A stretch of DNA of 64,000 nt from Solirubrobacterales bacterium (GTDB lineage: Bacteria > Actinomycetota > Thermoleophilia > Solirubrobacterales > Solirubrobacteraceae): assembly GCA_013815355.1 (NCBI GenBank), contig JACDGG010000001.1, positions 35,175 to 99,174 on the forward strand, given 5' to 3'. Position numbers and translations under genes: made by a program. Shown piece by piece: positions 28,687-45,917 of the stretch (position 1 is its first letter; each line of letters opens with the position of its first letter). A model generated the notes under the pieces. That model was not told the origin of the DNA, did no database searches, and saw only the letters and a program-made list of their open reading frames with translations.

Positions 28687-29772
28687 CTAGCGGATCGCTT
28701 CAAGCGCGGCCAGAAGGGTGGCTGTGCTCTGTGCGCTTGAGAAGCGATCGAGCCAGGCGCCGAGGTTGATCTCTGAGCGCAGCTCAAGAGCGGAAGCGTC
28801 CAGCACCGCATCGGCATAGGCTTGCGGGGTATCGCTTGGCGCGAGCTGGCCGGTGATCCCCGGAACGATCGCGTCGGCAACGCCCAGGGCCCGCGAGCTG
28901 GCCACGGACGGTATGCCCGCCGCCGCGGCCTCGACCAGCACGTTGGCCAGGCCCTCGGCGTTGGCGGTGAGCAGCAGGCAATCGACGTCGGATGCCGCCT
29001 CCCACCACGGCTCTCGCCAGCCGAGAAACGAGACGTTGAGGCCCAAGCGCGCGGCCTCCTGCTCGGTTGACTGGCGCAGAGGGCCGTCACCGATCACGCT
29101 GGCGCGCACGCTCACGCCGCGCTTTGCAAGCTCGCTGAGAACCTCGAGGAAGAGGTGCGGGCGCTTCTGCTTTGCGAGGCGACCGACGAGAGCGAGATGA
29201 AGCTCGGCAGGCAGCTCGAAGCTGAGGTCGCCGGCTGTTCTCGAGGCGACGACGGGGTTCGGGACCACGAACACACGATCCGCGGGAACGCGGAATGCTG
29301 AGACCAGCTCGGCAGCGACAGGGTGTGAGACGGCGAGCGCGCCGCTGGCGTACCGATACAGGCGCCGGGCGATCCACACGGTCAGCCTGTCGCGTCGCCG
29401 GACGTTGACGCGCTGCAGGGCCTGGACATTGTGCTCTGAGACCATCAGCGGCACGGGGTTGGCCCGACCCCGTTTCAGCGCAAACAAGGTGATCACGTTG
29501 CTGAAGGTCATCAGCGAGAGAACGACATCGGGTTTGTCCTCGCGGATGCGGGCCCGCAGCCAGCCCGGCATCAATGCTGGTCGCAGCGGGCCTCCACGGC
29601 TGGCGAGCCTGTGGCTGACCACTTCGCCTGGCAGCTCGACGCTCGGCTGTCGGCGGCCGTAGGCGTAGACGGTGATCGTGTGCCCCTGGGCCTGCAGTTC
29701 GGCGATCCACTGCCGGGCGATCGCCTCGGCGCCGCCGCCGTGCAGGTTGGGAGTGACGATCGCGGCGTGCAT
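28687..29772 (-). CDS. Glycosyltransferase family 4
   Basis: NLHGGGAEAIARQW, LVGRLAKQKRPHLFLEVL, DCLLLTANAEGLANVLVEAAAAGIPSVAS. Confidence 0.9.
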   Translation of the reverse strand: MHAAIVTPNLHGGGAEAIARQWIAELQAQGHTITVYAYGRRQPSVELPGEVVSHRLASRGGPLRPALMPGWLRARIREDKPDVVLSLMTFSNVITLFALKRGRANPVPLMVSEHNVQALQRVNVRRRDRLTVWIARRLYRYASGALAVSHPVAAELVSAFRVPADRVFVVPNPVVASRTAGDLSFELPAELHLALVGRLAKQKRPHLFLEVLSELAKRGVSVRASVIGDGPLRQSTEQEAARLGLNVSFLGWREPWWEAASDVDCLLLTANAEGLANVLVEAAAAGIPSVASSRALGVADAIVPGITGQLAPSDTPQAYADAVLDASALELRSEINLGAWLDRFSSAQSTATLLAALEAIR

Positions 29773-29957
29773 CAGGCGCCCGGAAGAGCTAGCGCAGAAC
29801 GCAAGATGGCCTGGGGAAGGAGTTTGACGATGCGGCTTTCATCTCACAGGCTCGCGGCGGGATGATACTAAGCGTCGATCGCGGTGCTGTGGCTCCTCCC
29901 GGAGCAGGCGCTTTGGCTCAGCTGCGGCGGCGGTAGCGACGGCCCGCCGTGAAATCC

Positions 29958-30965
29958 TCACGCGGAGTCCACGTTGGTAGAGGGCGATCGCCGCAGTAGC
30001 GAGCTGAGGGTGGCGCGAGCGCGCGGATACGCGCCGCTCACCGGCGGTGCGTCGAGACAGTCCAGAAGCGATGAGCGCAGTAGGGCTGCGCTTTGCGCCT
30101 TGGCAGCCGCGCGGCCGCCAACGAGCGGCAGCAGGCTCGCCAGATGTACGATCAGCGATAGGGCCTGCAGCGTGCGCAGCACCGTGCGTGCGCTGCGCCT
30201 TCCTGCTGCGCTGCCATCCCACTTCTCGATGTTCTCGAGAAAGCTGAGCAGCGCAAAACCCTGGATCCTCTCGTGCCCACCATGCTCGGATCCCTGGCCG
30301 TCGTGTGTCACGACGATCGCATCGGTCGTGCCGACGCCGGCGCCATCTGCTCTGTATCGCCGCGAGAGATCGACATCCTCGCAGTAGAGAAAGAGGCTCT
30401 CATCAAAGCCACCCAGCTCCAGAAACTCGCTGCGATCAACAACGAACGCGGCGCCCGAGATCCATTGCCGAGATCTTCTCAGGCGCGAGCTTGGCCGGCG
30501 CACATGCATCTCCCGCGGGACGAGAAACCACAGCACCATCAGCCAATAGAGCTCACGCCGCCAGCCCCATTCGGAGTACTTGAGATAACGAGAGCGGCGT
30601 CCGTCGTGCAGCACGCATCCGAGCATGCCGACGGGCCGATGGGCAGACAGCTCTGAGAGCCGTGCCGGGTTCGCGTGCAAGATCGCGGCATCGGGGTTCA
30701 GGACGAGGAGCAGATCACCACAGGCGGCGCGCGCGCCGACGTTCACACCTGCACCGAAGCCGACGTTGCCATGCCCCTCGAGGACCTCGACCGAGCCCTG
30801 CTCTCGCGCGATTTGACACGTCTGATCGGTCGAGCCGTTATCGACCAGGACGATCTGTGCGTCCGGCAGATGGCTTGCGATCGAATCGATCGCCGCTGCG
30901 ATCGTCTGCTCTGAGTTGTATGACACAAGGACGACCGACACGGCGTTGGCGTGCGGCGTGCTCAT
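29958..30965 (-). CDS. Glycosyltransferase family 2 (rhamnosyltransferase-like)
   Basis: VVLVSYNSEQTIAAAIDSI, VDNGSTDQTCQIA, NVGFGAGVNVGA, GGFDESLFLYCEDVDLSRR. Confidence 0.9.
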   Translation of the reverse strand: MSTPHANAVSVVLVSYNSEQTIAAAIDSIASHLPDAQIVLVDNGSTDQTCQIAREQGSVEVLEGHGNVGFGAGVNVGARAACGDLLLVLNPDAAILHANPARLSELSAHRPVGMLGCVLHDGRRSRYLKYSEWGWRRELYWLMVLWFLVPREMHVRRPSSRLRRSRQWISGAAFVVDRSEFLELGGFDESLFLYCEDVDLSRRYRADGAGVGTTDAIVVTHDGQGSEHGGHERIQGFALLSFLENIEKWDGSAAGRRSARTVLRTLQALSLIVHLASLLPLVGGRAAAKAQSAALLRSSLLDCLDAPPVSGAYPRARATLSSLLRRSPSTNVDSA

Positions 30966-31021
30966 CGTGGTCGGACAGGATACTCAGGCGGGCCGCACCG
31001 TAAACGCATCTCGGGCCGTGG

Positions 31022-32113
31022 ATGGCGCCGCTCGCGAGCACTTATGATGCGAGCCTCGTGAAGGACACGCTCGATTTCATCATCATCGGTGCGCAAAAGG
31101 CGGGAACCACATCTCTCTTTGAGTATCTGAGAAACCATCCGGACCTCCAGCTTCCCGACGGCAAGGAGGCGCCGTTCTTCAGTCATGCAAGCGCATACGA
31201 GCGTGGCTGGGAGGACTACATCCTCAAAACGTTCGCGCTCACCGAAAGCGATGCTAGGTGGGGCACCGCGACGCCCCAATACATGGTCGGTGGCCTGTGG
31301 GAGCAGCCAAACCCAGCAGGCGAGAATGGCTATGACGAGCGCACCGTGCCGCGGCGGATCTATGAACAGCTTCCGCAGGTGCGCCTGATCGCGATCCTGC
31401 GCGATCCAGCTGAGCGTGCTCGCTCACACCACCGTATGTCTGTCATGAACGACATCGAGCAGCGCCCGTTTGCCCAGGCGATCGACGATCTGCTGAGACC
31501 CGAGGCTCTCGCTGAGGCACGTAGGGAACCGCGCGAGATCACGGGCTATGTGACGTGGGGAGAGTACGGGCGGATCCTCACTGGGTACTTGGATGTCTTC
31601 CCACGTGATCAGATCCTCGTGCTGTTCACCGATGAGCTCGAGCGCGAGCCCGAGCGGCTCCTGCGTCGCATCTATGAGTTTCTCGGGGTGAGGGCCGACT
31701 TCATGCCAGCGAACGTCGGCGAGCGCTACCGCGTAGGTGGTAGCGATCGGCGCTTCTCCTGGCTGGGGACCAACTCGCCGCTGAACCCCTGGGCAATGCA
31801 GCGCGCGCTCACCTCAAGCAAGGGCGCAACGCGCCTCTGGCACGCTTTGCCGCAGACCAGGCGCCGGCAGATCGACGGCCTCGTGCGGCGCGTCGGGTAC
31901 AGGATGGATCTATGGAACCGCCGTAGCGCGGCGGCACCGGTCGATGACGACGAGGCGACGATCAATCGGCTGCGAGAGCACTACGCGCCGGACGCCCTGC
32001 GGCTCGCGGAGCAGATGGGCGGCGAGCCTCCCTGGGCGCAGTCCAGCGGCGCTGGTGGCGAGCTCACCGCCGCTCGTTCGTCATCGCCAGAGGCCAGAAC
32101 GCCGTCGCATTAA
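31022..32113 (+). CDS. Sulfotransferase
   Basis: FIIIGAQKAGTTSLFEYLRNHPDLQ, KEAPFFS, LIAILRDPAERARSHH. Confidence 0.9.
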   Translation: MAPLASTYDASLVKDTLDFIIIGAQKAGTTSLFEYLRNHPDLQLPDGKEAPFFSHASAYERGWEDYILKTFALTESDARWGTATPQYMVGGLWEQPNPAGENGYDERTVPRRIYEQLPQVRLIAILRDPAERARSHHRMSVMNDIEQRPFAQAIDDLLRPEALAEARREPREITGYVTWGEYGRILTGYLDVFPRDQILVLFTDELEREPERLLRRIYEFLGVRADFMPANVGERYRVGGSDRRFSWLGTNSPLNPWAMQRALTSSKGATRLWHALPQTRRRQIDGLVRRVGYRMDLWNRRSAAAPVDDDEATINRLREHYAPDALRLAEQMGGEPPWAQSSGAGGELTAARSSSPEARTPSH

Positions 32114-33476
32114 TTTTCAGGCGCCTACGGCAGAGGATGGTCAGGGCGACGTTCCACACGACAAAGCTCGCCGCGTCGGCGATCGCGGCTCCCGTCACGC
32201 CCAGAAACGGCACGAGCACGATCGTCAGAACCACGGTTGTCAGCAGGCCGAGCCCGACACCCCAGCAGGCCGCACGCTCGTGGCCGGTCATGATCAGCAC
32301 GGCGCCAACGGGACCGGCTGTGGCGTTGAACAGCTCGCCAAGCACGAGGATCCTGAGAGCTGTCCCGCCTGACGTGAACGCTGAGCCGAACAGGCCGAGA
32401 TAGACGCCGGGAAGCGCCACGAAGAAGATCACGATCGGCAGTGAAGCGATCACGCTCGCCTGCGCGATGCGTTCGGCGCCGTGCTCCATTCCCGCTAGAT
32501 CCCCCTTGGCGCGCATGCGCGCCACGAGCGGGGCAAACGGCATGTTGGCGGCGATCAGCAGCAGCACGATCAGCACGCCGCCTTTTTCTACCGCGCTGTA
32601 GATACCGGCGTCGCGTGTGCCCCCGATCGTGCCCACTGCGATCGTCGAGACATAGCCGTTGAGCTGCCAGATGCCTCCGATCAGCATCATCGGTAGCGCC
32701 GCAGAAACCCATTCTCGCATCTGGTATTTGGGAGCGGCAGAGCGCACCTGCTCAGGCACGGCTTTCCTCAAAGCGATCACGCCGGCGATAAAGGCCGTGC
32801 TCACCGCCGCCACGTTTACGAGCATCGCGGCGACGGGCGTGAGCACTTTCCCCCCCACGAGTGCCAGCGCGCCTACGCCGGCGATCAGGATCAGGGGGCG
32901 GATCACGAACTCAGGTATCTGCCCGACCACGACGCGCCCGAGCGCCTGCATCGTGCTCTGGCGCAGGATCGTCAGCGCGTTGATTGGGATCAGGGCCATC
33001 GCGAGCACGAACACGAGGCGCAAAGGTTCTGCAAGCGTCAGTAGGGCGATCGCCGAGCCGGCCGCCGCGATCGCGATCGAGGCGGCCGCGACGAGCGTGT
33101 TGGCGCGAATCAAAAGGCCGCGCAGGTGCTCCCACTTCTGCTTGACCTCATAGCCCGCGACGCCACGCACGACGAACAGGTTCAGGCCAAGCCCCGCGGG
33201 GATCGTCAGCGCCGAGGCCCACGCGAGCGCGAACACGTAGGCGCCATAGCCATGGCCGCCGAGCAGCCGCGCCAGCGCGACCGCCACGAGAAACCCGATC
33301 GCGCTCGAGGACGCCTGCAGCAAAGCTGTCGCCGAGGCACCAAACAGCATCCTGCGAACAAGCGAACGTGGCTGGGGAGCCTCCTGCGCGGTCGAGTCCT
33401 CCGAGGAGGTGAGGTCGGGCTGGCCTTCGGTGGGCGACGGCTCCAGCCGGCGTGTCACGCTTGGCATCTCACGCAT
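32064..33476 (-). CDS. Polysaccharide flippase (Wzx/MATE-like)
   Basis: About 12 predicted TM segments; RLLGGHGYGAYVFALAWASALTIPAGLGLNLFVVR. Confidence 0.85.
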   Translation of the reverse strand: MREMPSVTRRLEPSPTEGQPDLTSSEDSTAQEAPQPRSLVRRMLFGASATALLQASSSAIGFLVAVALARLLGGHGYGAYVFALAWASALTIPAGLGLNLFVVRGVAGYEVKQKWEHLRGLLIRANTLVAAASIAIAAAGSAIALLTLAEPLRLVFVLAMALIPINALTILRQSTMQALGRVVVGQIPEFVIRPLILIAGVGALALVGGKVLTPVAAMLVNVAAVSTAFIAGVIALRKAVPEQVRSAAPKYQMREWVSAALPMMLIGGIWQLNGYVSTIAVGTIGGTRDAGIYSAVEKGGVLIVLLLIAANMPFAPLVARMRAKGDLAGMEHGAERIAQASVIASLPIVIFFVALPGVYLGLFGSAFTSGGTALRILVLGELFNATAGPVGAVLIMTGHERAACWGVGLGLLTTVVLTIVLVPFLGVTGAAIADAASFVVWNVALTILCRRRLKINATAFWPLAMTNERR

Positions 33477-33648
33477 GCGCGAGCGTCATCCCGGAATCGG
33501 CGCGAGCGTGCAGCCGTGCTACGGCAAAGGGGTGCACGGCGGGCGCGTTGAGCCTCGCCACGCACATCACCACGATGCGATCCGTGCTCAAGCGCGCCAC
33601 GCTAATACGTTGGATGCGAGGTGGCTATCGTCGTTTTGTCCATTGCCG

Positions 33649-35406
33649 CTAGCGCTGGAATCTCCGTCGAGCGCGCCTGCGCCAGCGCATGAACGCCTGC
33701 CACCCGCCGGCCGAGAGATCCTGCCGCTGGACCGGGATTGCGTCGCCAATGCCAGAGGCTGGTGTGAGGATCGCCGCGCCGCTCGCCGCGGCAGACACGA
33801 ACGTGGGCTCGGTCCGGTAGGGCGAGGAGCGGGTCGCGAGCATGCGCTGCCATTCACCGACCCGCGGGACGGGACGGGCGGGCACTCGCGCTCTCGCCTG
33901 CGGGTTGCCCGCGACATCCGGATCGACGAGCACGGTCAAAAGGACGGCCGCGAGAGCGAGCCCGCTGGTGCTGAAAAGCGTCACGAGCGTCACCGAGGAG
34001 GTGAGGCTCGCCACGATCCAGATCGCCCCGCCGTAGCGCAGCCACGCATAGCGGCTTGGGCCCGCGGAGCGCCGCAGGCACATGATCAGCGTCAGCACGA
34101 CAGGCAGATAGATCAGCGCCGCTCCGATGGCTCCCATTGGCATGATGGCGTTTAGCACCCCGAGGTCTGGGTCCTCTATCGATCCGTGCGGCAGGCCATC
34201 GAAGTAGTGCACCGAGGGCGAGAGGAAGCCGAGCCCGCCGATCCACTGTTCACCCAAGTAAAATTTCATCGTCTTCGTCACAGCCTCTCGCACCGCGAGG
34301 GTTCCGCCGCTGCTTTCGATGTCGGAGAAGATCGATGTGATGCGTTCGATAAACGGGCCGCCGGAGAACAGGCCCGGCGCGATCAGAAGCACGGCGGCGA
34401 TGATCAGCACGATCCCACCGACGACGACGACCATCCGTTTGCGAAGTACCTTCGCGATCGCGACGCTGTTGGCGCTGTAGAGGACGAGCCACAGCGTGAC
34501 GAGCACAAAAGCCAGGATCAGGCCGATCCAGCGGGCCCGCGTGAGCTGCACGACAACGCTGACGAACAGCAGCAAAGCCACCGGGCGCGCGGCGATGCGC
34601 AGCGAGCGTTGCGGGGCCAGCAGACTCGCCGCGAGACTCAGCGCGAGCCCCGCGGTGACGAGGTCGGTCATCTCCGCATAGACGCGGGTCAGGCCGTCCT
34701 GGTGCAGGGTGTGCCCGACATGGATCAGCGAGCCGGGATTGCCCAGGCCCACGGCGGTCGCGGTCTGGACGAGCGCGAACAGGCAGACCCCGGCGGTGAG
34801 CGTTGCCAGCAGGGCGTGGAGGTCGCGGGTCGCTAGTCGCACGCGGGGAAGCAGGAGCAGCAGCACCGCAAAGTAGAGGTAGTTGCGGGCAAACGCGATC
34901 GTGGCCGTGATCCCCACGTGGTTTGAGACCATCGTCCGCGCTGCGGTGAACACGCACCACGTAAAAAGCAGCGTCGCGGCACCTATCACGAACCGTCCCG
35001 CGAAGCTCGGCCGATAGGGATTTGCATCCATCGCGATCCAGCCCAGCACGGTAAGCAGCAGCGTGCACAGGACGAGATCCTGCGTCGTGAAGTGACCGAT
35101 CAGATAGCGCGAGGTGTTCAGCACCGGGATGCCGTTCATCGCGGCGAGCACGAAAAGGCCTATGAACACGCCGCGATGGGCGAGCGCGAGCCTGCCCAGG
35201 AGGAGCACCGCGACCGCGATCGCGAAGGTCTTCATGCGTCCCTCTGCGATTGCCCACCCGCTCGCTGCCAAAAGGGCGACAGCTACGCCCGCAATTACGG
35301 CCGTCGTCGAGCTCCGGTTTGAGATCCCCCCGCGCCGCACGGCAGCGGCGCTGCCAAGCGCCAGCGCGCGTCCGATCGAGCCGATGTTTCGCTCTTGCGG
35401 GGGCAT
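33649..35406 (-). CDS. O-antigen polymerase/ligase-like membrane protein
   Basis: Multiple TM segments, large loop, position in the polysaccharide locus. Confidence 0.7.
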   Translation of the reverse strand: MPPQERNIGSIGRALALGSAAAVRRGGISNRSSTTAVIAGVAVALLAASGWAIAEGRMKTFAIAVAVLLLGRLALAHRGVFIGLFVLAAMNGIPVLNTSRYLIGHFTTQDLVLCTLLLTVLGWIAMDANPYRPSFAGRFVIGAATLLFTWCVFTAARTMVSNHVGITATIAFARNYLYFAVLLLLLPRVRLATRDLHALLATLTAGVCLFALVQTATAVGLGNPGSLIHVGHTLHQDGLTRVYAEMTDLVTAGLALSLAASLLAPQRSLRIAARPVALLLFVSVVVQLTRARWIGLILAFVLVTLWLVLYSANSVAIAKVLRKRMVVVVGGIVLIIAAVLLIAPGLFSGGPFIERITSIFSDIESSGGTLAVREAVTKTMKFYLGEQWIGGLGFLSPSVHYFDGLPHGSIEDPDLGVLNAIMPMGAIGAALIYLPVVLTLIMCLRRSAGPSRYAWLRYGGAIWIVASLTSSVTLVTLFSTSGLALAAVLLTVLVDPDVAGNPQARARVPARPVPRVGEWQRMLATRSSPYRTEPTFVSAAASGAAILTPASGIGDAIPVQRQDLSAGGWQAFMRWRRRARRRFQR

Positions 35407-35481: not shown

Positions 35482-36180
35482 TCAAACCGCGGCCAGCGTC
35501 GGCGCCACGGGCTCTCCTCCGAGTGCCAGGATCCCCATCCCGAGGCCGCGTTCTGGATCGAGGATCAGGTTCACAGCCTCGTTGCGCGAGCGCACACCGA
35601 GCTTGCGAAACGCCGAGGAGAGATGGCTCTTGACGGTGCTCTCGGCGAGGAACAGCTGCTGGGCGATCAAGCCGTTTGTGTAGCCCATCACGACCAGGCC
35701 GAGGATCTGCTTCTCGCGCGAGGAGAGCGCGGGCGGCTCGAGCTGGCGCCATTGGGTGCGAGGCACGCATGCCTGGCCTGCCTGCACCGCTTGCGCGCAC
35801 GGCCCCAGCGTCGTTGCGAGGTCCTTCCAAAGCACGATCCCGGCAGCGCCGGCAGTCAGCGCGGCGCGGATGCCCCATCGCTCGATGCTGCGGCAGGCGA
35901 CGATCAGGGGCGTCTCAAGGAAGGCCCGCGTCAGCGGCTCGACGCAACGCGTGAGGCCGGAGGATGCGTTCTCGACCCAGAGCACGATCAGGGCCGGCCG
36001 CGACTCAGCTTGCTTCAGCAGCGCCTCGACGTCGTCGAAGGCGAGGAAGCTGTGCCCTTCCTTTGCGAGTATCTCGGCAAGCTTCTCGCTCGGAGCACCG
36101 ACAGCGACCACCGCCACCTGTCCGCCAGCCAACGTTCCCGCTGTGCCTGAGGCTCGAGCCTTAATGACAGCGCTTGGCAT
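35482..36180 (-). CDS. LuxR/NarL-family regulator with atypical receiver-like domain
   Basis: C-terminal HTH LSSREKQILGLVVMGYTNGLIAQQLFLAESTVKSHLSSAFRKLGVRSRNEAV; N-terminal receiver-like region without the expected phospho-acceptor Asp. Confidence 0.85.
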   Translation of the reverse strand: MPSAVIKARASGTAGTLAGGQVAVVAVGAPSEKLAEILAKEGHSFLAFDDVEALLKQAESRPALIVLWVENASSGLTRCVEPLTRAFLETPLIVACRSIERWGIRAALTAGAAGIVLWKDLATTLGPCAQAVQAGQACVPRTQWRQLEPPALSSREKQILGLVVMGYTNGLIAQQLFLAESTVKSHLSSAFRKLGVRSRNEAVNLILDPERGLGMGILALGGEPVAPTLAAV

Positions 36181-36327
36181 ATCTCCTTAACGACCAGCTC
36201 TCTGGCGAACTTTTGCCGACTGTTCCCAGGCTTCCGAGCACGCAAGCATAGCTACCGACATTGTCGGCGCAATACGCAGCGACACCAGGAGCTGGCGGCG
36301 TTTCGAGCAATCAGGCGAGCCTGAACA

Positions 36328-36359
36328 CAAAACAGCCACCCCTGGGGATGGCTGTTTTG
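36328..36359. terminator. Hairpin (terminator-like) downstream of lasso precursor
   Basis: AAAACAGCCA-CCCCTGGGGA-TGGCTGTTTT inverted repeat with T-tract. Confidence 0.75.
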
Positions 36360-36396
36360 CTGCTGCTACGTCAACAAGCGCCAGTGGCGCCGACGG

Positions 36397-36579
36397 CTAC
36401 GGCGTGGATTTGCAGCCGGCTGCCGGGTTGCTCGCGCCGACGCTGTATCCGCCCGCCACACCCGACGGGTCGAACGCGTCTCCGCCGGTTCCGCCCAGAC
36501 AAGCGGCCGTCAGCTCCTGCAGGTCGCCGTAGTCGACGACCTGAGGCGTCTGGTAGGCCAATACTCTCGTCTCATCCAT
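36397..36579 (-). CDS. Lasso-peptide-like RiPP precursor, 60 aa: MDETRVLAYQTPQVVDYGDLQELTA/ACLGGTGGDAFDPSGVAGGYSVGASNPAAGCKSTP
   Basis: Leader matches the YxxPxVxxxGxLxxLT pattern; Asp at core position 9 if Thr is at -2; directly downstream of B1/B2/cyclase genes. Confidence 0.85.
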   Translation of the reverse strand: MDETRVLAYQTPQVVDYGDLQELTAACLGGTGGDAFDPSGVAGGYSVGASNPAAGCKSTP

Positions 36580-36686: not shown

Positions 36687-38591
36687 TCAAGGTGGAAAAA
36701 CGTACTGGCCGCCCACAGCGGCCCCGCTGGGGACCCTACGAGTCACGATTCGTGCTCCGCTCGCGCGCTCGGTGATCCTCATCGTATCCTCGCCTTCCTG
36801 GGCCCGCAGCCAGCACTCGGCGGTGAGCAGCCTCCACACCTGCCACATCCAGCGGAACGACCGTTGACCGCTGGCCGCGGGTCCGAACAGTGCGTGCTGC
36901 ATCTCCGCTAGATCGACATAGCTGCCCAGACGGGCGTGCGGATCGCCGATCAGCTCCCGCGCGGGCGCTCCGTCAGAGCCGGCGAGGCAGTCCAAGAGCA
37001 GCGAGTCAAATAGGGCCTTCTCTGGACGCAGGCGCACCGAGTCTGGCAGAAGGCCCGCCATCGCGAGCCGAAGCCCGGTGCGGCTGCGATGGCGGTCGAA
37101 GGTGCTCAGCGGCGCCATGCTCAGGCAGAGCTCCAGGAGCTCAAGGTCAAACAGCGGATGGCGTGCCTGCATTCCGGCCGAGGCCGCCCGACGGCGCTGG
37201 TGCTCAAAGACGCCGGTCTCCTCGACGCCACGCGTGAGCCCGTGCGCGGCAGCCGCCCACCAGCGCGGCCCGTCCAGGCGCTTCCACGCGTGCGGATCCT
37301 CGCTATCGATCAGGTCGCGGGCGAGCGGCGACTGCAGCCAGCTGGGTAGGGCGCGCCGTGCGCCCGATCGCTGCAGAGCAACCTGAAGTCGACGGGGCAG
37401 GGCACCGGACAGGGCGGTGTTGGCGAAGATCCTTGCCATGTCGCGTCGCGCTGGGTGATCACCCGCGCCGGGTAGCTCCCGCGTTAGGGCCAGTGCCTCA
37501 AACGGATGCCCTGCACGCAACCGATCGGCCATCAGGTAGGAGCGCGCGCCAAAGAGCTCATCGCCGCCGTCACCGCCAAGCGTCACCCGCACCCCGGCCG
37601 TGGCCGCAGCGCGCAGCAGCGGAAGCGCCCAGAAGTCCCCCCAGCTACGAAGCGGCAGCTGCCACTCATCGATCGACTCCACGGCGCTCGCCAGCAAGCC
37701 CCCGGCGCGGACCTCGGCCGTTATCCCAGGGAGCTCGAGCGCCGCGCGCAGCTCCTCGATCAGATCGGACTCATCGACCGCCGGATGCTCGGGGAACACG
37801 GCTGCCTGCGCGCGCACCCGGCCGGGTGCGCATGCGCAGGCCACGGCGGCGATCGAGGAGGAGTCAAGGCCGCCGCTCATCAACACGCCCGTGAGGCCGT
37901 CGTTGCTGATCCGGCGCGTGACCGCGCGCTCGAGCGTCGTGCGGATCTCCCCGGCGAGCTGCGCTTCGGTTCTGAGCGGAGGCTCGCGGAAGCGAGGCTC
38001 CCAGTAGGACACCTCGCGCGCACCGTCACGATCGAGCAGCAACGCCGCGCCCGGGTTCAGGCGACGAATGCCCACATAGAGGGTTGCCGAGCCGGGCCTG
38101 TTGCTCATCGTGATCCAGTGCGCGACGCTTACCCGATCAGGCTCCGGGCGGCGGGGCAGCAGCGCGAGCAGGCTGCGGATCTCGCTGGCGAAGTGCAGGC
38201 GCCCGGAGCTCTCGTGCAAGAACATCGAGCGCACGCCGAGCTGATCGCGTGCGAGCAGTCCCTCGCCGCGATCCTGATCCCAGATCAGCACGGCGAAGTC
38301 ACCGCGTATGCGCGGCAGGAGATCCGCTCCCCAGCTCCGCCAGGCGGCCGCGAGCAGCTCCTCCTCTGGGGCGTCGAAATGCGAGCCGAGCGCGGAGCTG
38401 AGCTCTGCCGCGTTGTCGAGAAAGCCATCGAGCAGACACAGCGTGGAGCCCTGGAGAGGCTGCACGCCGCTATAGGCCACGTGCAGCGCTCCGCGCTCGA
38501 TGACCGACGCATCACCGGGCAGCGCTCCTGCCAGGCGCAAGGAGTCCATCCGAGCGCTCGGATCAAAGACCCCGGCGAGCCAGCGGGTCAT
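36687..38591 (-). CDS. Asparagine-synthetase-like lasso cyclase (C protein)
   Basis: SGGLDSSSIAAVACA, GGDGGDELFGARSYL; N-terminus MTRWLAG lacks the Cys2 glutaminase nucleophile. Confidence 0.9.
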   Translation of the reverse strand: MTRWLAGVFDPSARMDSLRLAGALPGDASVIERGALHVAYSGVQPLQGSTLCLLDGFLDNAAELSSALGSHFDAPEEELLAAAWRSWGADLLPRIRGDFAVLIWDQDRGEGLLARDQLGVRSMFLHESSGRLHFASEIRSLLALLPRRPEPDRVSVAHWITMSNRPGSATLYVGIRRLNPGAALLLDRDGAREVSYWEPRFREPPLRTEAQLAGEIRTTLERAVTRRISNDGLTGVLMSGGLDSSSIAAVACACAPGRVRAQAAVFPEHPAVDESDLIEELRAALELPGITAEVRAGGLLASAVESIDEWQLPLRSWGDFWALPLLRAAATAGVRVTLGGDGGDELFGARSYLMADRLRAGHPFEALALTRELPGAGDHPARRDMARIFANTALSGALPRRLQVALQRSGARRALPSWLQSPLARDLIDSEDPHAWKRLDGPRWWAAAAHGLTRGVEETGVFEHQRRRAASAGMQARHPLFDLELLELCLSMAPLSTFDRHRSRTGLRLAMAGLLPDSVRLRPEKALFDSLLLDCLAGSDGAPARELIGDPHARLGSYVDLAEMQHALFGPAASGQRSFRWMWQVWRLLTAECWLRAQEGEDTMRITERASGARIVTRRVPSGAAVGGQYVFPP

Positions 38592-39523
38592 GCCGAGGAG
38601 CTCAGCCGTTGCAAGAGCGCCCCGGCCAGCTCCGGGGCGCTCGTGGCAGAGCCACAGCTGATCAGCTCAACCCGTGCTCGGGCCGCGAGCGAGCACACCT
38701 CGAGCAGGCCGCTGAGGCGCTCGGGGGTGGCCAACACGAAGTTGAAGGTTGCCGAGAGCAGAATCTGCGCGTCCGTGCCCGACGCGAACTGTGGGCTTTC
38801 GGGCCCGTCAGGGCGGCGGTCGATGAAGAACAGCGTGTTGAGCGGCGCAGGCTCGGCAGCCCCCGCGACCCTCACCATCCGCTCCCTGTCGTTTACCGCG
38901 ACGACATCCTGCGCTGTATCGCGCTCGTCGCGATGATCGCGGGTGACGCCCGCGATCGGCGTCCCTGGCAGGGCGTAGAGGCTGCCGCCACGGGCTTCGA
39001 GGGTGAGAACGTCGTCGGCGAGGAAGCTAGCGCCAGCCCTACAGAGCTCGAGGGCCAGCGTGGTCTTGCCCGCGCGCGAGGGGCCAAGCAGGGCGATCGC
39101 CTGCCCCGCGTGCACGACGGCGCTGGCGTGGAAGACCTCCAGGCCGTGCAGCAAAGCGGCAAACGGCAGGACCTGGGCGATGAGCAATCGCTGCCATACC
39201 CCGTCGGGCCGGCCTTCGGGGAAGCACCTCAGCGTCTCCCCGTCGGCCGCGAGGAGATGGGCTCCATACGCCGGTCCGTAGATCAGATAGCCCGCCTCGG
39301 GGCGTGTCTCGATACGGAAGTTGACGCTCCCATCCGGTCCTCGTTCGTCACAGATCAGCTCCGCGCCTGGCGGCCAATGCGACGCGGCCTGATCGAAGTG
39401 CGTGGAAATCGCAAGCGTGCGACCACTCGGCGTCGGTGAGGGGCCAGCGAGAAACCACAGCGGTATCTCAGAGCTGATGTCTAGGCCAAAGGCCGTGGCT
39501 GTCGTTGACAGCAGCTGTCCCAT
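38588..39523 (-). CDS. HPr kinase-like protein (putative lasso tailoring kinase)
   Basis: LLGPSRAGKTTLALELCRAGASFLADDVLTLEA (Walker A plus downstream Asp pair typical of HprK-like proteins). Confidence 0.82.
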   Translation of the reverse strand: MGQLLSTTATAFGLDISSEIPLWFLAGPSPTPSGRTLAISTHFDQAASHWPPGAELICDERGPDGSVNFRIETRPEAGYLIYGPAYGAHLLAADGETLRCFPEGRPDGVWQRLLIAQVLPFAALLHGLEVFHASAVVHAGQAIALLGPSRAGKTTLALELCRAGASFLADDVLTLEARGGSLYALPGTPIAGVTRDHRDERDTAQDVVAVNDRERMVRVAGAAEPAPLNTLFFIDRRPDGPESPQFASGTDAQILLSATFNFVLATPERLSGLLEVCSLAARARVELISCGSATSAPELAGALLQRLSSSA

Positions 39524-39981
39524 CAGAGCTCGACCAGCCGGCCAAACGAACCATCGCCTGGGTCCAGTACGGGGTCTCCTGCGTGCTCGACCCAGGCGTG
39601 GGCCAGAAACTCGGGTGTCGTGCGTGCGCCGATCACCAGCTTTGCCTCGATACCACGACTGGCCAGCAGCCGGGTGAGTACAAGCGAGCGTGCCAGACAG
39701 CGGGTGTCGCCCGGCACATATCTCAGCAGCCGGGCAACCGCGTGGCTCAGTCGCCGCGCCTCTTCGAGTGAGCCCGGCGAGGGCGGCATGGCCGGGGAGG
39801 ACCGCGATCGCAGCCTCGCTATGACCGGCGCTATCGGCGTGTTGCGAAGCGCTCTGCGTGCCTGGCCGTAGGCCGCGAGGATCTCTACGGCGAGCCGCAG
39901 ACGCTCGAGTTGACCCAAACGCTCGGGTGCTCTCCTCGGCGGAGCTGAAACCTGCCGAGGCTCAGGGCCCGGAGCTGCCAT
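39523..39981 (-). CDS. Lasso peptide biosynthesis B2 protein (transglutaminase-like leader peptidase)
   Basis: Cys-His-Asp: DTRCLARSLVLTRLLASRGIEAKLVIG...LAHAWVEHAGDPVLDPGDG. Confidence 0.9.
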   Translation of the reverse strand: MAAPGPEPRQVSAPPRRAPERLGQLERLRLAVEILAAYGQARRALRNTPIAPVIARLRSRSSPAMPPSPGSLEEARRLSHAVARLLRYVPGDTRCLARSLVLTRLLASRGIEAKLVIGARTTPEFLAHAWVEHAGDPVLDPGDGSFGRLVEL

Positions 39982-40279
39982 CGGTCTCGATCAACCCACG
40001 CTCCAGCAGCGAGGAGCACAGGGTGCAGAGGTCGGCCTCGATCGCGCTCTGGGCCTGCTCGTAGCTCACAGCCAGCTCGGCTGCGGCGTCGCGCACGCAG
40101 TCCGCCCGCTCGAGCACCTCGAGCATGCGCCCGGCCGTCGCGTTGAGCCCGTGGTACTTACCGGTCTGCAGGTTGAGCACCACCGTCTCCGACGGGAAGC
40201 TGCGATAGACGACATGCTGCGGCATCCTGACCTTGGCGGCCAAGAGCAATGAGGCATCTGGCACGGTTCGCGGGATCAT
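39962..40279 (-). CDS. PqqD-like RRE protein (lasso B1)
   Basis: MIPRTVPDASLLLAAKVRMPQHVVYRSFPSETVVLNLQTGKYHGLNATAGRMLEVLE; start trimmed from the larger ORF. Confidence 0.87.
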   Translation of the reverse strand: MIPRTVPDASLLLAAKVRMPQHVVYRSFPSETVVLNLQTGKYHGLNATAGRMLEVLERADCVRDAAAELAVSYEQAQSAIEADLCTLCSSLLERGLIETDGSSGP

Positions 40280-40298: not shown

Positions 40299-41159
40299 TC
40301 AGTACTCGATGATCGTCCCGCGCCGCTGACCAAAGCGGATCGCGCGACCGAGGACGAAGATGGATAGGGGTAGCAGCACCGCCGCAAAGCCGACGAGCTT
40401 GAGTAGCGCCGTCTCAGAGGACTCGCCCAGCGAGCTGTCGACGAGCAGATGCCGCAGCAGATCCGTCGCGGCCGTAAACGGCTGCAGCCTTGAGATCGTC
40501 TGTAGCCAGCCCGGCAGCAGCGAGACAGGGAAGTAGAGCCCGCCGACGATCGACAGCATCGCCACCACCCAGCTGGTTCCGACGTTTCCCTGCTTGATGA
40601 CGACCGTGAGGGCGGCAAAGAGCACGCCAAAGGGCAGGAAGGCAAATAGCACGAGCAGCATCACCGGAAGCGCGACCGGCACCGTGGACCAGTGCAGATG
40701 CAGGTCGAAGATCACACAGCCGAGGCCGAGCGTGATCGCCGCAAGCACAAACGAGTACATCATCGGAAAGAACGTCATCGCGAGCACGCTGCGGATCGCG
40801 CCAAACGGCGAGAGCAGCAGCCGGTCGAAGGTGCCCGCGATGAGCTCCTGGCGCACCAGTTCGGGGATCGAGAAGCACGAGTAGAGGACGCTGATCAGCG
40901 AGATGCCAACGACGACAAAGCCGAAGTAGGAGTTGGATGAGGCAAAGCCGTGCACGTGGACGAGCCGCGAGACGTAGTAGAAGAGGGTGAGGCTGAACAG
41001 CGCGGTGAGCACCTGGCTGACCAGGCGGGTGCGGTAGGACCGGTACACGTACAGGTCCCTGCGCATCACCGCGAGAAACGCGTATGCGGCTGTGGTCGCA
41101 TCGCTCATTGAGCCACCAACCGTCCCTGCTCGAGCATCCAGTGGGGTCGCATCGCTCAT
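40299..41159 (-). CDS. ABC-2 type transporter permease
   Basis: Six-TM ABC-2 permease pattern; first ATG (MSDATPLDARAG...) overlaps the ATPase stop; a second in-frame ATG lies 51 bp downstream. Confidence 0.85.
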   Translation of the reverse strand: MSDATPLDARAGTVGGSMSDATTAAYAFLAVMRRDLYVYRSYRTRLVSQVLTALFSLTLFYYVSRLVHVHGFASSNSYFGFVVVGISLISVLYSCFSIPELVRQELIAGTFDRLLLSPFGAIRSVLAMTFFPMMYSFVLAAITLGLGCVIFDLHLHWSTVPVALPVMLLVLFAFLPFGVLFAALTVVIKQGNVGTSWVVAMLSIVGGLYFPVSLLPGWLQTISRLQPFTAATDLLRHLLVDSSLGESSETALLKLVGFAAVLLPLSIFVLGRAIRFGQRRGTIIEY

Positions 41160-41195
41160 TGAGCCACCAACCGTCCCTGCTCGAGCATCCAGTGG
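41094..41195. repeat. Perfect 51-bp tandem duplication spanning the ATPase/permease junction
   Basis: ggtcgcatcgctcattgagccaccaaccgtccctgctcgagcatccagtgg read twice, at 41094-41144 and 41145-41195. Confidence 0.95.
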
Positions 41196-41902
41196 AAGTC
41201 GAAGTTGATGTCCAGGCTTTCGCCGCTCGGTGAGCACCAGAGGACCGCGCCGTCACGCTCGAGCAGTCCGCTCACAGCGCCTTGCAGGAGATCTCCGCCC
41301 TCCGTGTCGAGGCTCGTCAGCGGCTCGTCCAGCAGCACTACCTCCGGATGGGGAAGGAAGGTCATCGCGATGCGCAGGCGTTGACGCTGGCCCATCGACA
41401 TGCGGTCCACCCGGCGATTGGCGAGATCGGCGAGATCGAATCTGACGATCGCCTCCTCGATCCACTCGCGGAAGCGCTCGCGTGGGACCATCGCGATACG
41501 TGCCCAGAACTCGAGCTGGCGGCGCACGGTGAGCCGCGCGTACAGCCCGCGATCACCCGCGGGCAGGAACGAGACGAGCTGCTGGTAGCGCACACGGTGC
41601 TTGTTCGGGTGCAGACCCCAAACTTCGGCGCGTCCGCCGTCAGGCTCGATCAGCCCCGCCGCTATCCGCAGCATCGTCGTCTTGCCGATCCCGTTGCGCC
41701 CGCCCACCCATGTAACCGTTCCAGGCGCGAGCGTCAGCTCGAGCTCATCGAGCACAAGTGGCAGGTCCTTGCGCCAGCGCTTACTGACCCGATCAAGCCT
41801 CAGCGGCGCCGCATTCAAGGACGGCTCCTGGGCATGCTCAGGCGCGGTCAGCATCGGGCGATCGCTCGTGGGAGCGGTTAGGGGCGCCGGTCTCGCCGTC
41901 AC
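41156..41902 (-). CDS. ABC transporter ATP-binding protein
   Basis: WVGGRNGIGKTTMLRIAAGL Walker A, MSMGQRQRLRIAMTFL signature, VVLLDEPLTSLD Walker B. Confidence 0.92.
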   Translation of the reverse strand: MTARPAPLTAPTSDRPMLTAPEHAQEPSLNAAPLRLDRVSKRWRKDLPLVLDELELTLAPGTVTWVGGRNGIGKTTMLRIAAGLIEPDGGRAEVWGLHPNKHRVRYQQLVSFLPAGDRGLYARLTVRRQLEFWARIAMVPRERFREWIEEAIVRFDLADLANRRVDRMSMGQRQRLRIAMTFLPHPEVVLLDEPLTSLDTEGGDLLQGAVSGLLERDGAVLWCSPSGESLDINFDFHWMLEQGRLVAQ

Positions 41903-42858
41903 AGCAGCGCTCCGTTGTCAATCGGCGTTTGGCGGGCGAGCGCGCCTTCGATCAGCTCGGCGAGCACGGCCGGCTCCTGCTCGAGGCTTGCCGTGAGCCG
42001 CACAAGCGCTGTCTGCTCCATCAGGTCTGCATACAGCGAGAAGCGATCGCGCTGGCGCTCCTGCTCGCCGGGCTGGCCCAGCATGTAGGGAGCAAGCGGC
42101 AAGGGGCTCGGCGCCAGCGGGCTGACAGCGGTCGGTAGCTCAGCACCGCGCTCGAGCATGCACAGCATCCGCACCGGGCGTGGCTGGGTCGTCGTGTTGC
42201 CCACCGCCAGCCAGTGCTCGCCGGCGAGGGTCGCAAGCGATTCGCCGAGCGTATGCGGATCGATCCCCCGGAGTGTGCCCGTGGCGAGGTTCATGTGCGG
42301 AGAGCCGGGGTGCGCGAGGACCCCGTCGGCTGTGCGCTGCAGGACCAGCACGTCATCGGCGAACAGCGCCCAGCCGCGGTTGAGCATCTCGATTGCGAGC
42401 GTGGACTTGCCCATCCCGCTGGGTGCCATGATCGCCACCACGCCCTCGCTTGAATCCACGGCCGCTGCGTGTAGGGCCTCATAGCCGCGCATCACGCTAA
42501 TCGCCGGGATCACCTTGCTGATGAGCACTCGCTGCCAATCGAGGGATTCGCGCTCGGGTACGCAATCAAGCTGGCGCATGTCAGCGTGTAGAAGGAAACG
42601 CGCACGATTTCCATAGACAAAGAGTGCCTCGCCGTCGGCTCCTTGTTCGATCAGGAAGTCTTGGCCGTCGCCGAGGCGTCCACGCCACTCAGGTGAACCG
42701 GCCACGGCCCCCCACTCGCGCTCGAGCTCCTCCGGCGTGATCCGCGCGAGCGCTAGTACCGGAAGATCGGGATGTTCGACGGGCGAGATGGGCTCACTTC
42801 CCAGGAGCGGAAACGCGCAGGTCAGGTGCAGACCATAGGCGGCGTAGTGGCTCTCCAT
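41899..42858 (-). CDS. Second HPr kinase-like protein
   Basis: IMAPSGMGKSTLAIEMLNRGWALFADDVLVLQ; overall layout similar to the 38588-39523 gene. Confidence 0.8.
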   Translation of the reverse strand: MESHYAAYGLHLTCAFPLLGSEPISPVEHPDLPVLALARITPEELEREWGAVAGSPEWRGRLGDGQDFLIEQGADGEALFVYGNRARFLLHADMRQLDCVPERESLDWQRVLISKVIPAISVMRGYEALHAAAVDSSEGVVAIMAPSGMGKSTLAIEMLNRGWALFADDVLVLQRTADGVLAHPGSPHMNLATGTLRGIDPHTLGESLATLAGEHWLAVGNTTTQPRPVRMLCMLERGAELPTAVSPLAPSPLPLAPYMLGQPGEQERQRDRFSLYADLMEQTALVRLTASLEQEPAVLAELIEGALARQTPIDNGALL

Positions 42859-42946: not shown

Positions 42947-43786
42947 TCAGTGCCGTTTCTTGGGCTTGGTCGTTTTGCGTTTCGTGCAGGTGTGGTAGGT
43001 CCGGCTACCCGAGATCTGATGCCCGCGAACCGTGATCGCTTTGATCTTTACGGTGAAAGCGCCGTGCGGGAGACCCTTCAGGTTGACGGTGGAGATGTAG
43101 ATGTTGCCACGATGCACGACTGGGATCTTGCGTCCCTTGAGCGTCACCAGCACACTCTTGAATGGGTCGTATTGCGTGTTGCGAATGTGGATGCGAAATT
43201 TTCTGCCGCTCAGGCATTTCTTTGTGTTCGGCAGTGAGACGACGCGCTTAAAGCTCGACACCGCAGAGCCGGACAGCGGCGCGGTCAACGCCGAGCTCTC
43301 GCAGCCGTAGCTTGCCCCGACGCCTTCGCTGTTCGGGGGAAGCTTCGGTTGCGTAGTGCCGGGGGCGCTCAGGCATACGCGCAGGTAGCGTGCGCCGTTG
43401 ACTTCTTCGACAACCCGCCACGCTGTGGAACCGAGCGTCGGGTTCAGCCCGCATGCCGCGGTTTCGAAGTACCACTGGTGGAAGCCCTGGTAGGAGCCGT
43501 CGGTCTGGAGTGTGATGCCGGTCCAGATTTCCTGTCCAATCGGGTGGGTGCAGGTCGCAAATTTCGTCGGCGAGACCACGATGCCCACAAATTTGCCGTT
43601 GGGTGCCGGCTGGACGACGATCTGGCCACCGTTGTACGACCAGACCCCTTCGATGCCTGGTGCCGCTGGTGCCGCTGCGGCCGCTGCGGTGGGGAGAGTA
43701 AACAGGAGCAGGGCTGCGGCGAGCACTCCCAGCAGCGGGGAGCGACGTCTTGGGCAAGTGGGGGCATAAGTCTCGGTTATTGACAT
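42947..43786 (-). CDS. Secreted protein of unknown function (DUF2147-like N-terminal half)
   Basis: Signal LLGVLAAALLLFTLPTAAAAAAP; GIEGVWSYNGGQIVVQP; basic C-terminus. Confidence 0.6.
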   Translation of the reverse strand: MSITETYAPTCPRRRSPLLGVLAAALLLFTLPTAAAAAAPAAPGIEGVWSYNGGQIVVQPAPNGKFVGIVVSPTKFATCTHPIGQEIWTGITLQTDGSYQGFHQWYFETAACGLNPTLGSTAWRVVEEVNGARYLRVCLSAPGTTQPKLPPNSEGVGASYGCESSALTAPLSGSAVSSFKRVVSLPNTKKCLSGRKFRIHIRNTQYDPFKSVLVTLKGRKIPVVHRGNIYISTVNLKGLPHGAFTVKIKAITVRGHQISGSRTYHTCTKRKTTKPKKRH

Positions 43787-43857
43787 TCTCTTATCAACGT
43801 CGGATCGGGCGGATTCTTCCATGCGCGTGGTGCTTGACCCGCGCCTCATCGGGAGGC

Positions 43858-44853
43858 TCAACCGTCGAGCGCGTGTTGGAGGCTCTCGAGCACCCGCACG
43901 ACGCGCAGCCCGCTGTTGCCGTCCGAGCGCGGGCTCGCGCCGCTGCGGATGCATTCGACGAAGTGCTCGCACTCGATGCGCAGCGGCTCGCGGTTGGGGA
44001 TGCGCGGGGAGAACGTGTCCCCTGAGCGCGCGATGTACTCCCCCCAGGAGCGCGTGTCCTCGTCAAAGCCCTTGTCGTAGATCGTCAGCTTGCCCTCGAT
44101 CAGCATGTCGTCGAACGTCGCCATCTTCTGCGCGCCGACGACGGTGATGCGCCGCTCCTTGTGGGGATCGAGCCAGGAGAGGTGAAGGTGCGCGACCACG
44201 CCCGAGGGGAAGCGCAGGTAGCAGAACACCACGTCCTGGACGCCCCCGCGCACGTAGGAGGCGCCGTGCGCCTCACACTCCACGGGCTCCTCGCCGATCA
44301 GGTGCAGCGCCACCGAGACGTCGTGGGCGCCGAGGCTCCAGAGTGCGTTCTCATCGGCGCGCAGCTTGCCCAGGTTCAGGCGGTTGCCATAGATGTAGTA
44401 GAGGCCGCCCAGCTCCTCGCCGTCGATCAGCTCCTTCAGCTTGGTGACGGCCGGGTGGTACTCGAGCAGGTGCCCGACCATCAGGATGCGATTCGCCTGC
44501 GCGGCAGCCGCGACCGCGCGTTCGGCGTCAGGCGCGTTCGTCGCCAGCGGCTTCTCCACGAAGCAGTGCTTGCCGGCCTGCGCCACGGCGATCGCAAGCT
44601 CGGCGTGGGTCGGCACGGGCGTCGCGAGCACGACCGCATCGAGCGTCTCGTCGGCCAGCAGCTCGCCGATCTCAGCCGTGGTGTGTGCGCCCGGAAAGGA
44701 GGCCTTCAGGCGCTCGCGCGCCTCGGCCGATGCGTCGCAGAGCCAGGCAAGCTCGCAGCCGGGGATCGCGGCGAAGTTGCGCGCGAGGTTCGGGCCCCAG
44801 TAGCCGAGGCCGACCACTCCCACACGCACCGGGCTCGGCGCCGGCTCGCTCAC
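43858..44853 (-). CDS. Gfo/Idh/MocA family oxidoreductase
   Basis: RVGVVGLGYWGPNLARNF, FVEKPLATN; GTG start overlaps upstream stop. Confidence 0.9.
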   Translation of the reverse strand: MSEPAPSPVRVGVVGLGYWGPNLARNFAAIPGCELAWLCDASAEARERLKASFPGAHTTAEIGELLADETLDAVVLATPVPTHAELAIAVAQAGKHCFVEKPLATNAPDAERAVAAAAQANRILMVGHLLEYHPAVTKLKELIDGEELGGLYYIYGNRLNLGKLRADENALWSLGAHDVSVALHLIGEEPVECEAHGASYVRGGVQDVVFCYLRFPSGVVAHLHLSWLDPHKERRITVVGAQKMATFDDMLIEGKLTIYDKGFDEDTRSWGEYIARSGDTFSPRIPNREPLRIECEHFVECIRSGASPRSDGNSGLRVVRVLESLQHALDG

Positions 44854-45917
44854 CGAAGCGTTCCGATCGCCTTCACGCAGCGCTCGGCCGCGTGGCCATC
44901 GCCGTAGAGCTCGGGGCGCTCCTCGGGTGGCGTGCGCTCGAGCGCGGCGAGCGCGGCGGCGCTGTCGAGATCCACGAGCGTGTTCCAGCCCGCCCGCACG
45001 GTCTCGACCCACTCGGTGTTGGCTCTGAGCGTCACGCAGGGCACCCCGGCAAGGTACGCCTCCTTCTGGACGCCCCCGGAATCGGTCAGCACCGCCCGCG
45101 CCTGGCAGACCAGCGCGCTGAACTCGAGATATCCGAGCGGCGCGCACAGCTCCAGACCCTCGCCCGCGGCGAGTCCCTCCAGCAGCCCGGCTTCGTTCAT
45201 GCGCGCGCGGGTGCGCGGGTGCAGCGGGAACAGAACCGGCGCGGGCAGTGCTTCGATCAGCGCAACGAGCGCGCCCAGGCGCTCGGGATCATCGACGTTG
45301 CCGGCGCGATGTGCCGTCAGCAGCAGATAGGCGCCTGGCGCCAGACCGTGCGCGGCCGGCACCGAGACCTCCTCGCGTGCGGCGGGCTGCCAACGCATCG
45401 CGACGTCGACCATCACATCGCCCACCACCTCGATGTGACCCGCGATTGACTCCGCGCGCAGGTTCTCGGCGGCCGTCTCGGAGGAGCACAGCAGAAGCTC
45501 ACTCAGATGATCGCTGAGCACGCGATTGCGCTCCTCGGGCATCGCGCGGTCGAAGGAGCGCATCCCGGCCTCGACGTGGATCACGGGCACGCCTGCCTGG
45601 GCTGATGCCAGAGCACCCGCGAGCGTGGAGTTGGTATCGCCGTAGACGAGCGTCGCGTCGGGTTCGCTCGCTGCCAGCAGCGGCTCGAGCGCGGCGAGCA
45701 TGCGTGCCGTCTGCGACGTATTCGAGCCGCCGCCGATCCCCAGCTCGTGCTCGGGGCGCGCCAGCCCCAGCTCGGTGAAGAACACCCGCGAGAGCGAGTC
45801 GTCGTGATGCTGGCCGGTGTGCACGAGGATCTCCTCGTGCTGGGCGCGCAACGGCCCCGAGACGTCCGCTGCCTTGATGAACTGCGGCCTGTTTCCCACG
45901 ACGGTGAGGATGCGCAC
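44850..45917 (-). CDS. wecB: UDP-N-acetylglucosamine 2-epimerase (non-hydrolysing)
   Basis: VVGNRPQFIKAADVS, LVHTGQHHDDSLS, VYGDTNSTLAGALAS, HVEAGMRSFDRAMPEERNR. Confidence 0.93.
   Translation of the reverse strand: MRILTVVGNRPQFIKAADVSGPLRAQHEEILVHTGQHHDDSLSRVFFTELGLARPEHELGIGGGSNTSQTARMLAALEPLLAASEPDATLVYGDTNSTLAGALASAQAGVPVIHVEAGMRSFDRAMPEERNRVLSDHLSELLLCSSETAAENLRAESIAGHIEVVGDVMVDVAMRWQPAAREEVSVPAAHGLAPGAYLLLTAHRAGNVDDPERLGALVALIEALPAPVLFPLHPRTRARMNEAGLLEGLAAGEGLELCAPLGYLEFSALVCQARAVLTDSGGVQKEAYLAGVPCVTLRANTEWVETVRAGWNTLVDLDSAAALAALERTPPEERPELYGDGHAAERCVKAIGTLR

What the first reader, a model, noticed from the sequence alone, without database searches (positions are those of the whole stretch)
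36397..36579. Unusually long (about 35 aa), Gly-rich lasso core with two cysteines
Seen: leader MDETRVLAYQTPQVVDYGDLQELTA, with Thr at -2, gives core ACLGGTGGDAFDPSGVAGGYSVGASNPAAGCKSTP. Asp9 would close a 9-residue macrolactam (Asp8 if Cys is residue 1). Cys2 lies in the ring and Cys31 near the tail end. Most characterised lasso cores are about 15-26 aa. Inference: a ring-to-tail disulfide (class I/III-like) with a very long threaded tail, ending in CKSTP with Ser33/Thr34 as kinase targets.
Basis: partly seen in the sequence, partly recalled or inferred. Interest (0 to 1): 0.72.

Follow-up and report, generated by a model that had tools for sequence, protein, structure and literature searches.

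The report
Long cysteine-bridged lasso peptide gene cluster
A soil actinobacterium of the order Solirubrobacterales carries a complete gene set for a knotted "lasso" peptide whose predicted 35-residue core would be slightly longer than any characterised one and is probably pinned by a disulfide bond; the machinery is of a known kind, and the product has never been seen.

Summary
On the minus strand (36579-36397) lies a lasso precursor: the NCBIfam lasso-leader model is matched above its cut-off. It is the last gene of a complete operon: two HPrK-like kinases, split ABC exporter, B1, B2, cyclase, precursor. A strong hairpin follows it. An orthologous cluster with the same gene order exists in one Solirubrobacterales genome of another family. 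Its precursor is 70% identical, with core ACLGGSGGDSGYPGTVGGYTVGPSNPAAGCTSNP. The core is under purifying selection (dN 0.20, dS 1.74). The leader register (Tyr-17, Pro-14, Thr-2) and Asp9, present in 14 of 15 LTA/LTR-type lasso cores from relatives, fix Ala1-Asp9 as the ring; Asp12 is not conserved. Cys2, the tail Cys and Ser(-3) are conserved; Thr34 is not. A class III-type ring-tail disulfide in a 34-35 residue lasso is the best reading, but threading, disulfide and phosphorylation remain inferred. The Ser33/Thr34 target is only half supported; ring position 6 (Thr/Ser) is an alternative, since a known lasso kinase (BsfK) modifies a ring Ser. Length is notable against characterised lassos (30-33 aa maximum) but 31-34 aa predicted cores recur in the order. 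The family is rare: two members found.

The parts
36397..36579 (-). Lasso precursor gene: leader (codons 1-25) and 35-aa core ACLGGTGGDAFDPSGVAGGYSVGASNPAAGCKSTP
36397..36504 (-). Core-coding part with stop; predicted ring Ala1-Asp9, Cys2 in ring, Cys31 in tail
36320..36360 (-). Strong hairpin (14-pair central stem, T run) just downstream of the precursor: probable operon terminator
   Evidence: z -5.0 for the 87-nt stretch; 0 of 200 shuffles fold as well; not listed by the simple terminator scan
36687..38591 (-). Lasso cyclase (C): glutamine amidotransferase plus asparagine-synthase domains, SGGLDSS ATP-binding motif
38588..39523 (-). HPrK-like kinase 2
39523..39981 (-). B2 leader peptidase; Cys95 and His128 invariant with the ortholog
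   Evidence: NF033537 85.9 bits against cut-off 33
39962..40279 (-). B1 (PqqD-like leader-recognition protein)
   Evidence: PF05402 45.9 bits against cut-off 23.4
40299..41237 (-). ABC-2 exporter permease
41156..41902 (-). ABC exporter ATPase
41899..42858 (-). HPrK-like kinase 1
35482..36180 (-). LuxR-type regulator next to the cluster; neighbours the lasso cluster in the ortholog and in three further relatives
42947..43798 (-). Putative secreted protein upstream; conserved at this place in the ortholog (43%), but relatives elsewhere lack lasso neighbours, so membership is doubtful

Best explanation
This is a lasso peptide biosynthetic cluster with an unusually long core. B1 binds the leader; one or both HPrK-like kinases phosphorylate the precursor on a core hydroxyl; B2 cuts after LTA; the cyclase joins the Ala1 amine to the Asp9 side chain around the tail; Cys2 (ring) and Cys31 (tail) then form a disulfide, probably without a dedicated enzyme, giving a class III-type lasso of 35 residues; the ABC pair exports it. 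Shown: genes, gene order, leader register, and conservation of Asp9, both Cys and Ser(-3). Inferred: ring closure, threading, disulfide, phosphorylation and its site, export.
For: Leader model and B2 equivalog over cut-off; cyclase, PqqD and ABC families; orthologous cluster with the same order; ortholog core keeps A1, C2, L3, G4, G5, G7, G8, D9, GGY, SNPAAGC, S(-3), P(-1); purifying selection; Asp9 in 14 of 15 related cores, no position in 20000 shuffles reaching that; leader Tyr-17/Pro-14/Thr-2 register only with the LTA|A cut (register in PMC10368454); Ala is among experimentally observed first residues (PMC12670498); both kinases keep His, Walker A Lys and Asp-Asp, residues important in BsfK (PMC10368454); the known class III cluster and most class IV clusters lack dedicated disulfide enzymes (PMC9266682).
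Against: Only one ortholog, so conservation rests on two sequences. The Cys-Cys spacing differs by one residue (31 against 30). No product known. The core has few bulky residues to hold a threaded tail, so the lock would rest on the disulfide. No thioredoxin-like gene was seen in the cluster. HPrK2 has Arg in place of a Walker A Gly and is below the Pfam cut-off.
Confidence: 0.66

Rival explanations
1. The macrolactam forms (Ala1-Asp9) but the peptide is not stably threaded: a branched-cyclic peptide with a ring-tail disulfide, giving two covalent macrocycles without a mechanical lock.
For: Gly-rich ring and tail, few bulky plug residues in either core.
Against: The cyclase belongs to the lasso lineage and neighbouring clusters encode ordinary-looking lasso cores; known lasso cyclases pre-fold the threaded state (general knowledge).
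Confidence: 0.17
2. The two Cys do not bond with each other: free thiols, intermolecular dimer, or metal or redox role; the lasso is otherwise as described.
For: No oxidoreductase in the cluster; the Cys-Cys distance changes by one residue between the two members.
Against: Exactly two Cys, both conserved, in a core otherwise changed at about 30% of positions; disulfides in lassos form without dedicated enzymes (PMC9266682).
Confidence: 0.12
3. Core starts at Cys (ring Cys1-Asp8), class I-like.
For: Class I lassos start with Cys, and siamycin-type cores begin CLG (general knowledge).
Against: Puts Thr at -3 and Tyr at -18, off the fixed register; two Cys only, whereas class I has two disulfides; related cores in the order begin A-S-G or A-T-G in the same frame with Asp9 (PMC9266682).
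Confidence: 0.04
4. Decayed or non-lasso peptide whose leader is a relic.
For: No product known; only two members.
Against: dN/dS 0.12-0.16, intact synteny, full gene set.
Confidence: 0.01

Closest known systems
Class III lasso peptides (BI-32169, 9401-LP1)
   Same: One predicted ring-to-tail disulfide (PMC9266682).
   Different: Those cores are much shorter (general knowledge: BI-32169 has 19 residues); the 9401-LP1 cluster has no genes beyond A-D, here there are two kinases.
Pandonodin (class IV, 33 aa) and achromonodin-1 (class II, 30 aa)
   Same: Record-long lassos; pandonodin also has one disulfide (PMC13352647).
   Different: Pandonodin's disulfide lies wholly in the tail; this one would join ring and tail; 35 aa is slightly longer.
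Paeninodin/PadeK and BsfA/BsfK phosphorylated lasso systems
   Same: HPrK-like kinase in the lasso cluster with split B1/B2; His, Lys, Asp-Asp motif kept (PMC10368454).
   Different: Two kinases; no C-terminal Ser (Ser is third from the end) and no Ser3; site unknown.
Other predicted Solirubrobacterales lasso clusters (G078, G031, G143 and others)
   Same: ABC pair, B1, B2, HPrK genes and cyclase; Asp9; often a precursor just after the cyclase.
   Different: Their cores lack Cys and have unrelated tails.

Membership tests
Lasso peptide precursor/cluster | Leader with YxxPxV/L motif and Thr at -2 | tested here: met
   NF033521 over cut-off; Tyr-17, Pro-14, Thr-2
Lasso peptide precursor/cluster | B1 (RRE), B2 (transglutaminase-like peptidase) and asparagine-synthase-like cyclase adjacent | tested here: met
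   the cyclase matches NF033535 but far below its strict cut-off (182 against 525)
Lasso peptide precursor/cluster | Small first core residue and Asp/Glu at core position 7-9, conserved | tested here: met
   Ala1, Asp9 in both orthologs; Asp9 in 14 of 15 related cores
Lasso peptide precursor/cluster | Macrolactam formed and tail threaded | not testable with these tools
   needs the product
Class III lasso peptide | Exactly two Cys, one in ring, one in tail, conserved | tested here: met
   (two sequences only)
Class III lasso peptide | Ring-tail disulfide formed | not testable with these tools
   needs MS with and without reduction
Class I lasso peptide | Two disulfides and Cys at position 1 | tested here: not met
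   two Cys only; register gives Ala1
Class IV lasso peptide | Both Cys in the tail | tested here: not met
   Cys2 lies within the predicted Ala1-Asp9 ring
Phosphorylated (PadeK-type) lasso peptide | HPrK-like kinase with catalytic His, Lys and Asp-Asp | tested here: met
   both kinases keep His, Lys, Ser/Thr, Asp-Asp; one Walker A Gly differs in each
Phosphorylated (PadeK-type) lasso peptide | Ser as the C-terminal residue | tested here: not met
   core ends in Pro; the conserved Ser is third from the end

The most novel reading that the evidence does not exclude
A class III lasso longer than any characterised, in which a Gly-rich, nearly plug-free tail is locked by a ring-tail disulfide rather than by bulky residues, and which is phosphorylated by two different kinases at two sites (ring position 6 and Ser-3).
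Probability: 0.2. Interest if true: 0.65.

Novelty: new variant of a known kind. Interest (0 to 1): 0.42.

Why it matters
Each trait has a precedent (33-aa lasso, ring-tail disulfide, kinase tailoring), but none of the characterised lassos in the papers read combines them. If made, it would extend the length record, add to the very few class III lassos, and let one ask whether a disulfide can replace steric plugs and what a pair of lasso kinases does.

Tried and rejected
Asp12 as ring closer: not conserved. Cys1-Asp8 ring: breaks the leader register. Class I and class IV: excluded by Cys number and position. Thr34 as kinase site: Asn in the ortholog. A dedicated disulfide enzyme: none by Pfam in the cluster, and a WCxxC scan of the window hit only an ORF on the strand opposite the predicted genes. 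Secreted protein 42947-43798 as a cluster member: conserved in the ortholog, but its relatives elsewhere lack lasso neighbours. More family members: none in 232 genomes of the order beyond the one, none in 399 of the class, 398 of the phylum, genome contigs (only the same ortholog) or plasmids. The viral-contig scan failed twice.

Full report
What is there. It passes NCBI's lasso-leader model (23.7 bits, cut-off 19), and the B2 gene upstream passes the lasso B2 equivalog (85.9 bits, cut-off 33). Reading with transcription, the operon is HPrK1, ABC ATPase, ABC permease, B1, B2, HPrK2, cyclase, precursor; coding regions overlap or nearly abut except for about 107 nt before the precursor. An exceptionally stable hairpin follows the precursor (z -5.0 for the stretch), consistent with the end of the operon.

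Relatives. The window lies in a 3.2 Mb assembly. Searching 232 genomes of its order found one true relative of the precursor: G131, of another family of the order, 70% identity over 53 residues. The genome-contig scan with the cyclase pair found the same contig under the name JAJKHV010000123.1, MAG Solirubrobacterales bacterium isolate b13_HoplandSoilSeptJan; this places the order as Solirubrobacterales. Class, phylum and plasmid searches added none. In G131 the order secreted protein, HPrK1, ABC ATPase, ABC permease, B1, B2, HPrK2, cyclase, precursor, LuxR is the same, with protein identities of 43-70%. The divergence is old, yet the core is kept: 24 of 34 aligned codons encode the same residue, 11 of them through synonymous changes; dN 0.20 against dS 1.74 (dS near saturation, so the ratio is rough).

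Ring. With the cut at LTA|A, Tyr, Pro and Thr fall at -17, -14 and -2, the register described for lasso leaders (PMC10368454). Aligning 15 cores of LTA/LTR type from the order and class on this cut, Asp is at position 9 in 14; in 20000 within-core shuffles no position exceeded 8. These cores come from related clusters and some are close paralogs, so 14 of 15 overstates independence, but the window and G131 cores fit the rule with their only shared acidic residue. Asp12 is absent in G131.

Cysteines. Cys2 and the tail Cys (fifth from the end) are the only Cys in both cores. The segment between Asp9 and the tail Cys differs by one residue. One ring and one tail Cys match class III; class I needs two disulfides and Cys at position 1, class IV two tail Cys (PMC9266682). 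No disulfide enzyme was seen, as is also the case for the class III cluster known in the literature and for most class IV clusters. This is a prediction from two sequences.

Kinases. Both HPrK-like proteins keep the His, Lys and Asp-Asp that mattered in BsfK (PMC10368454). Each departs from that motif at one Walker A Gly: HPrK1 has Ala for the first Gly (its mutation to Ala in BsfK harmed solubility), and the window's HPrK2 has Arg for the second (a position where Ala was tolerated in BsfK). A predicted structure of HPrK2 (mean pLDDT 77.8, shallow alignment) matches PEPCK and HPr kinase structures with low TM-scores, so only a shared core is supported. Two kinases also occur in clusters of G078, G031 and G143, so this is a habit of the order and not tied to this core. 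Conserved candidate hydroxyls are Ser33 (Ser32 in G131), Ser25 (Ser24), position 21 (Thr20) and ring position 6 (Thr/Ser). Kinases of the paeninodin kind act on a last-residue Ser, which is absent here, while BsfK acts on ring Ser3; so the site is open.

How unusual. The longest characterised lassos named in a 2026 review are pandonodin at 33 aa and achromonodin-1 at 30 aa (PMC13352647). A 35-aa product would edge past them. Predicted cores of 31-34 aa occur elsewhere in the order (ASG..G.EDGAGK... family), so length alone is not exceptional among predictions; the pair of Cys with this length is.

Verdict. A genuine, selected lasso cluster of known machinery with a new, rare core family. The structural claims are reasonable and specific but untested.

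Noticed in passing
window 38588-39523 and 41899-42858; L039, L040, L041, L045: Two different HPrK-like kinases per lasso cluster is recurrent in the order; one literature search for 'two kinases' with lasso peptides found no description of such a pair.
   Followed up: partly
window 28687-35406 and 43858-45917; L039:13778-15310: The cluster sits inside an exopolysaccharide locus (glycosyltransferases, sulfotransferase, flippase, O-antigen ligase, epimerase) and next to a sugar transferase in the ortholog.
   Followed up: partly
window 35482-36180; L039, L043, L044, L045: A LuxR regulator neighbours several lasso clusters of the order.
   Followed up: no
L003, L019, L061: Predicted Cys-free 31-34 aa cores of the form (A/G)(S/A)G..G.EDG(A/S)GK...LP, a separate long-core family, also after LTQ and VTR leaders.
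   Followed up: no
L057, L068, L073: Lasso-type leaders (LTQ/LTL) followed by 34-41 aa Lys-rich or His-rich cores, without a clear ring acid at 7-9; may be another peptide class.
   Followed up: no
L052: Two neighbouring precursors with two Cys each (GCNKDYVGSDGFTFQNQQVACTSG and TGCYWNKQFGGTDGWTFMGISVPISNCSS) in another family of the class.
   Followed up: no
window about 41130-41230, minus strand: The start of the ABC permease reading frame holds a tandem duplication (LDARAGTVGGSMSDAT twice), overlapping the end of the ATPase gene.
   Followed up: no
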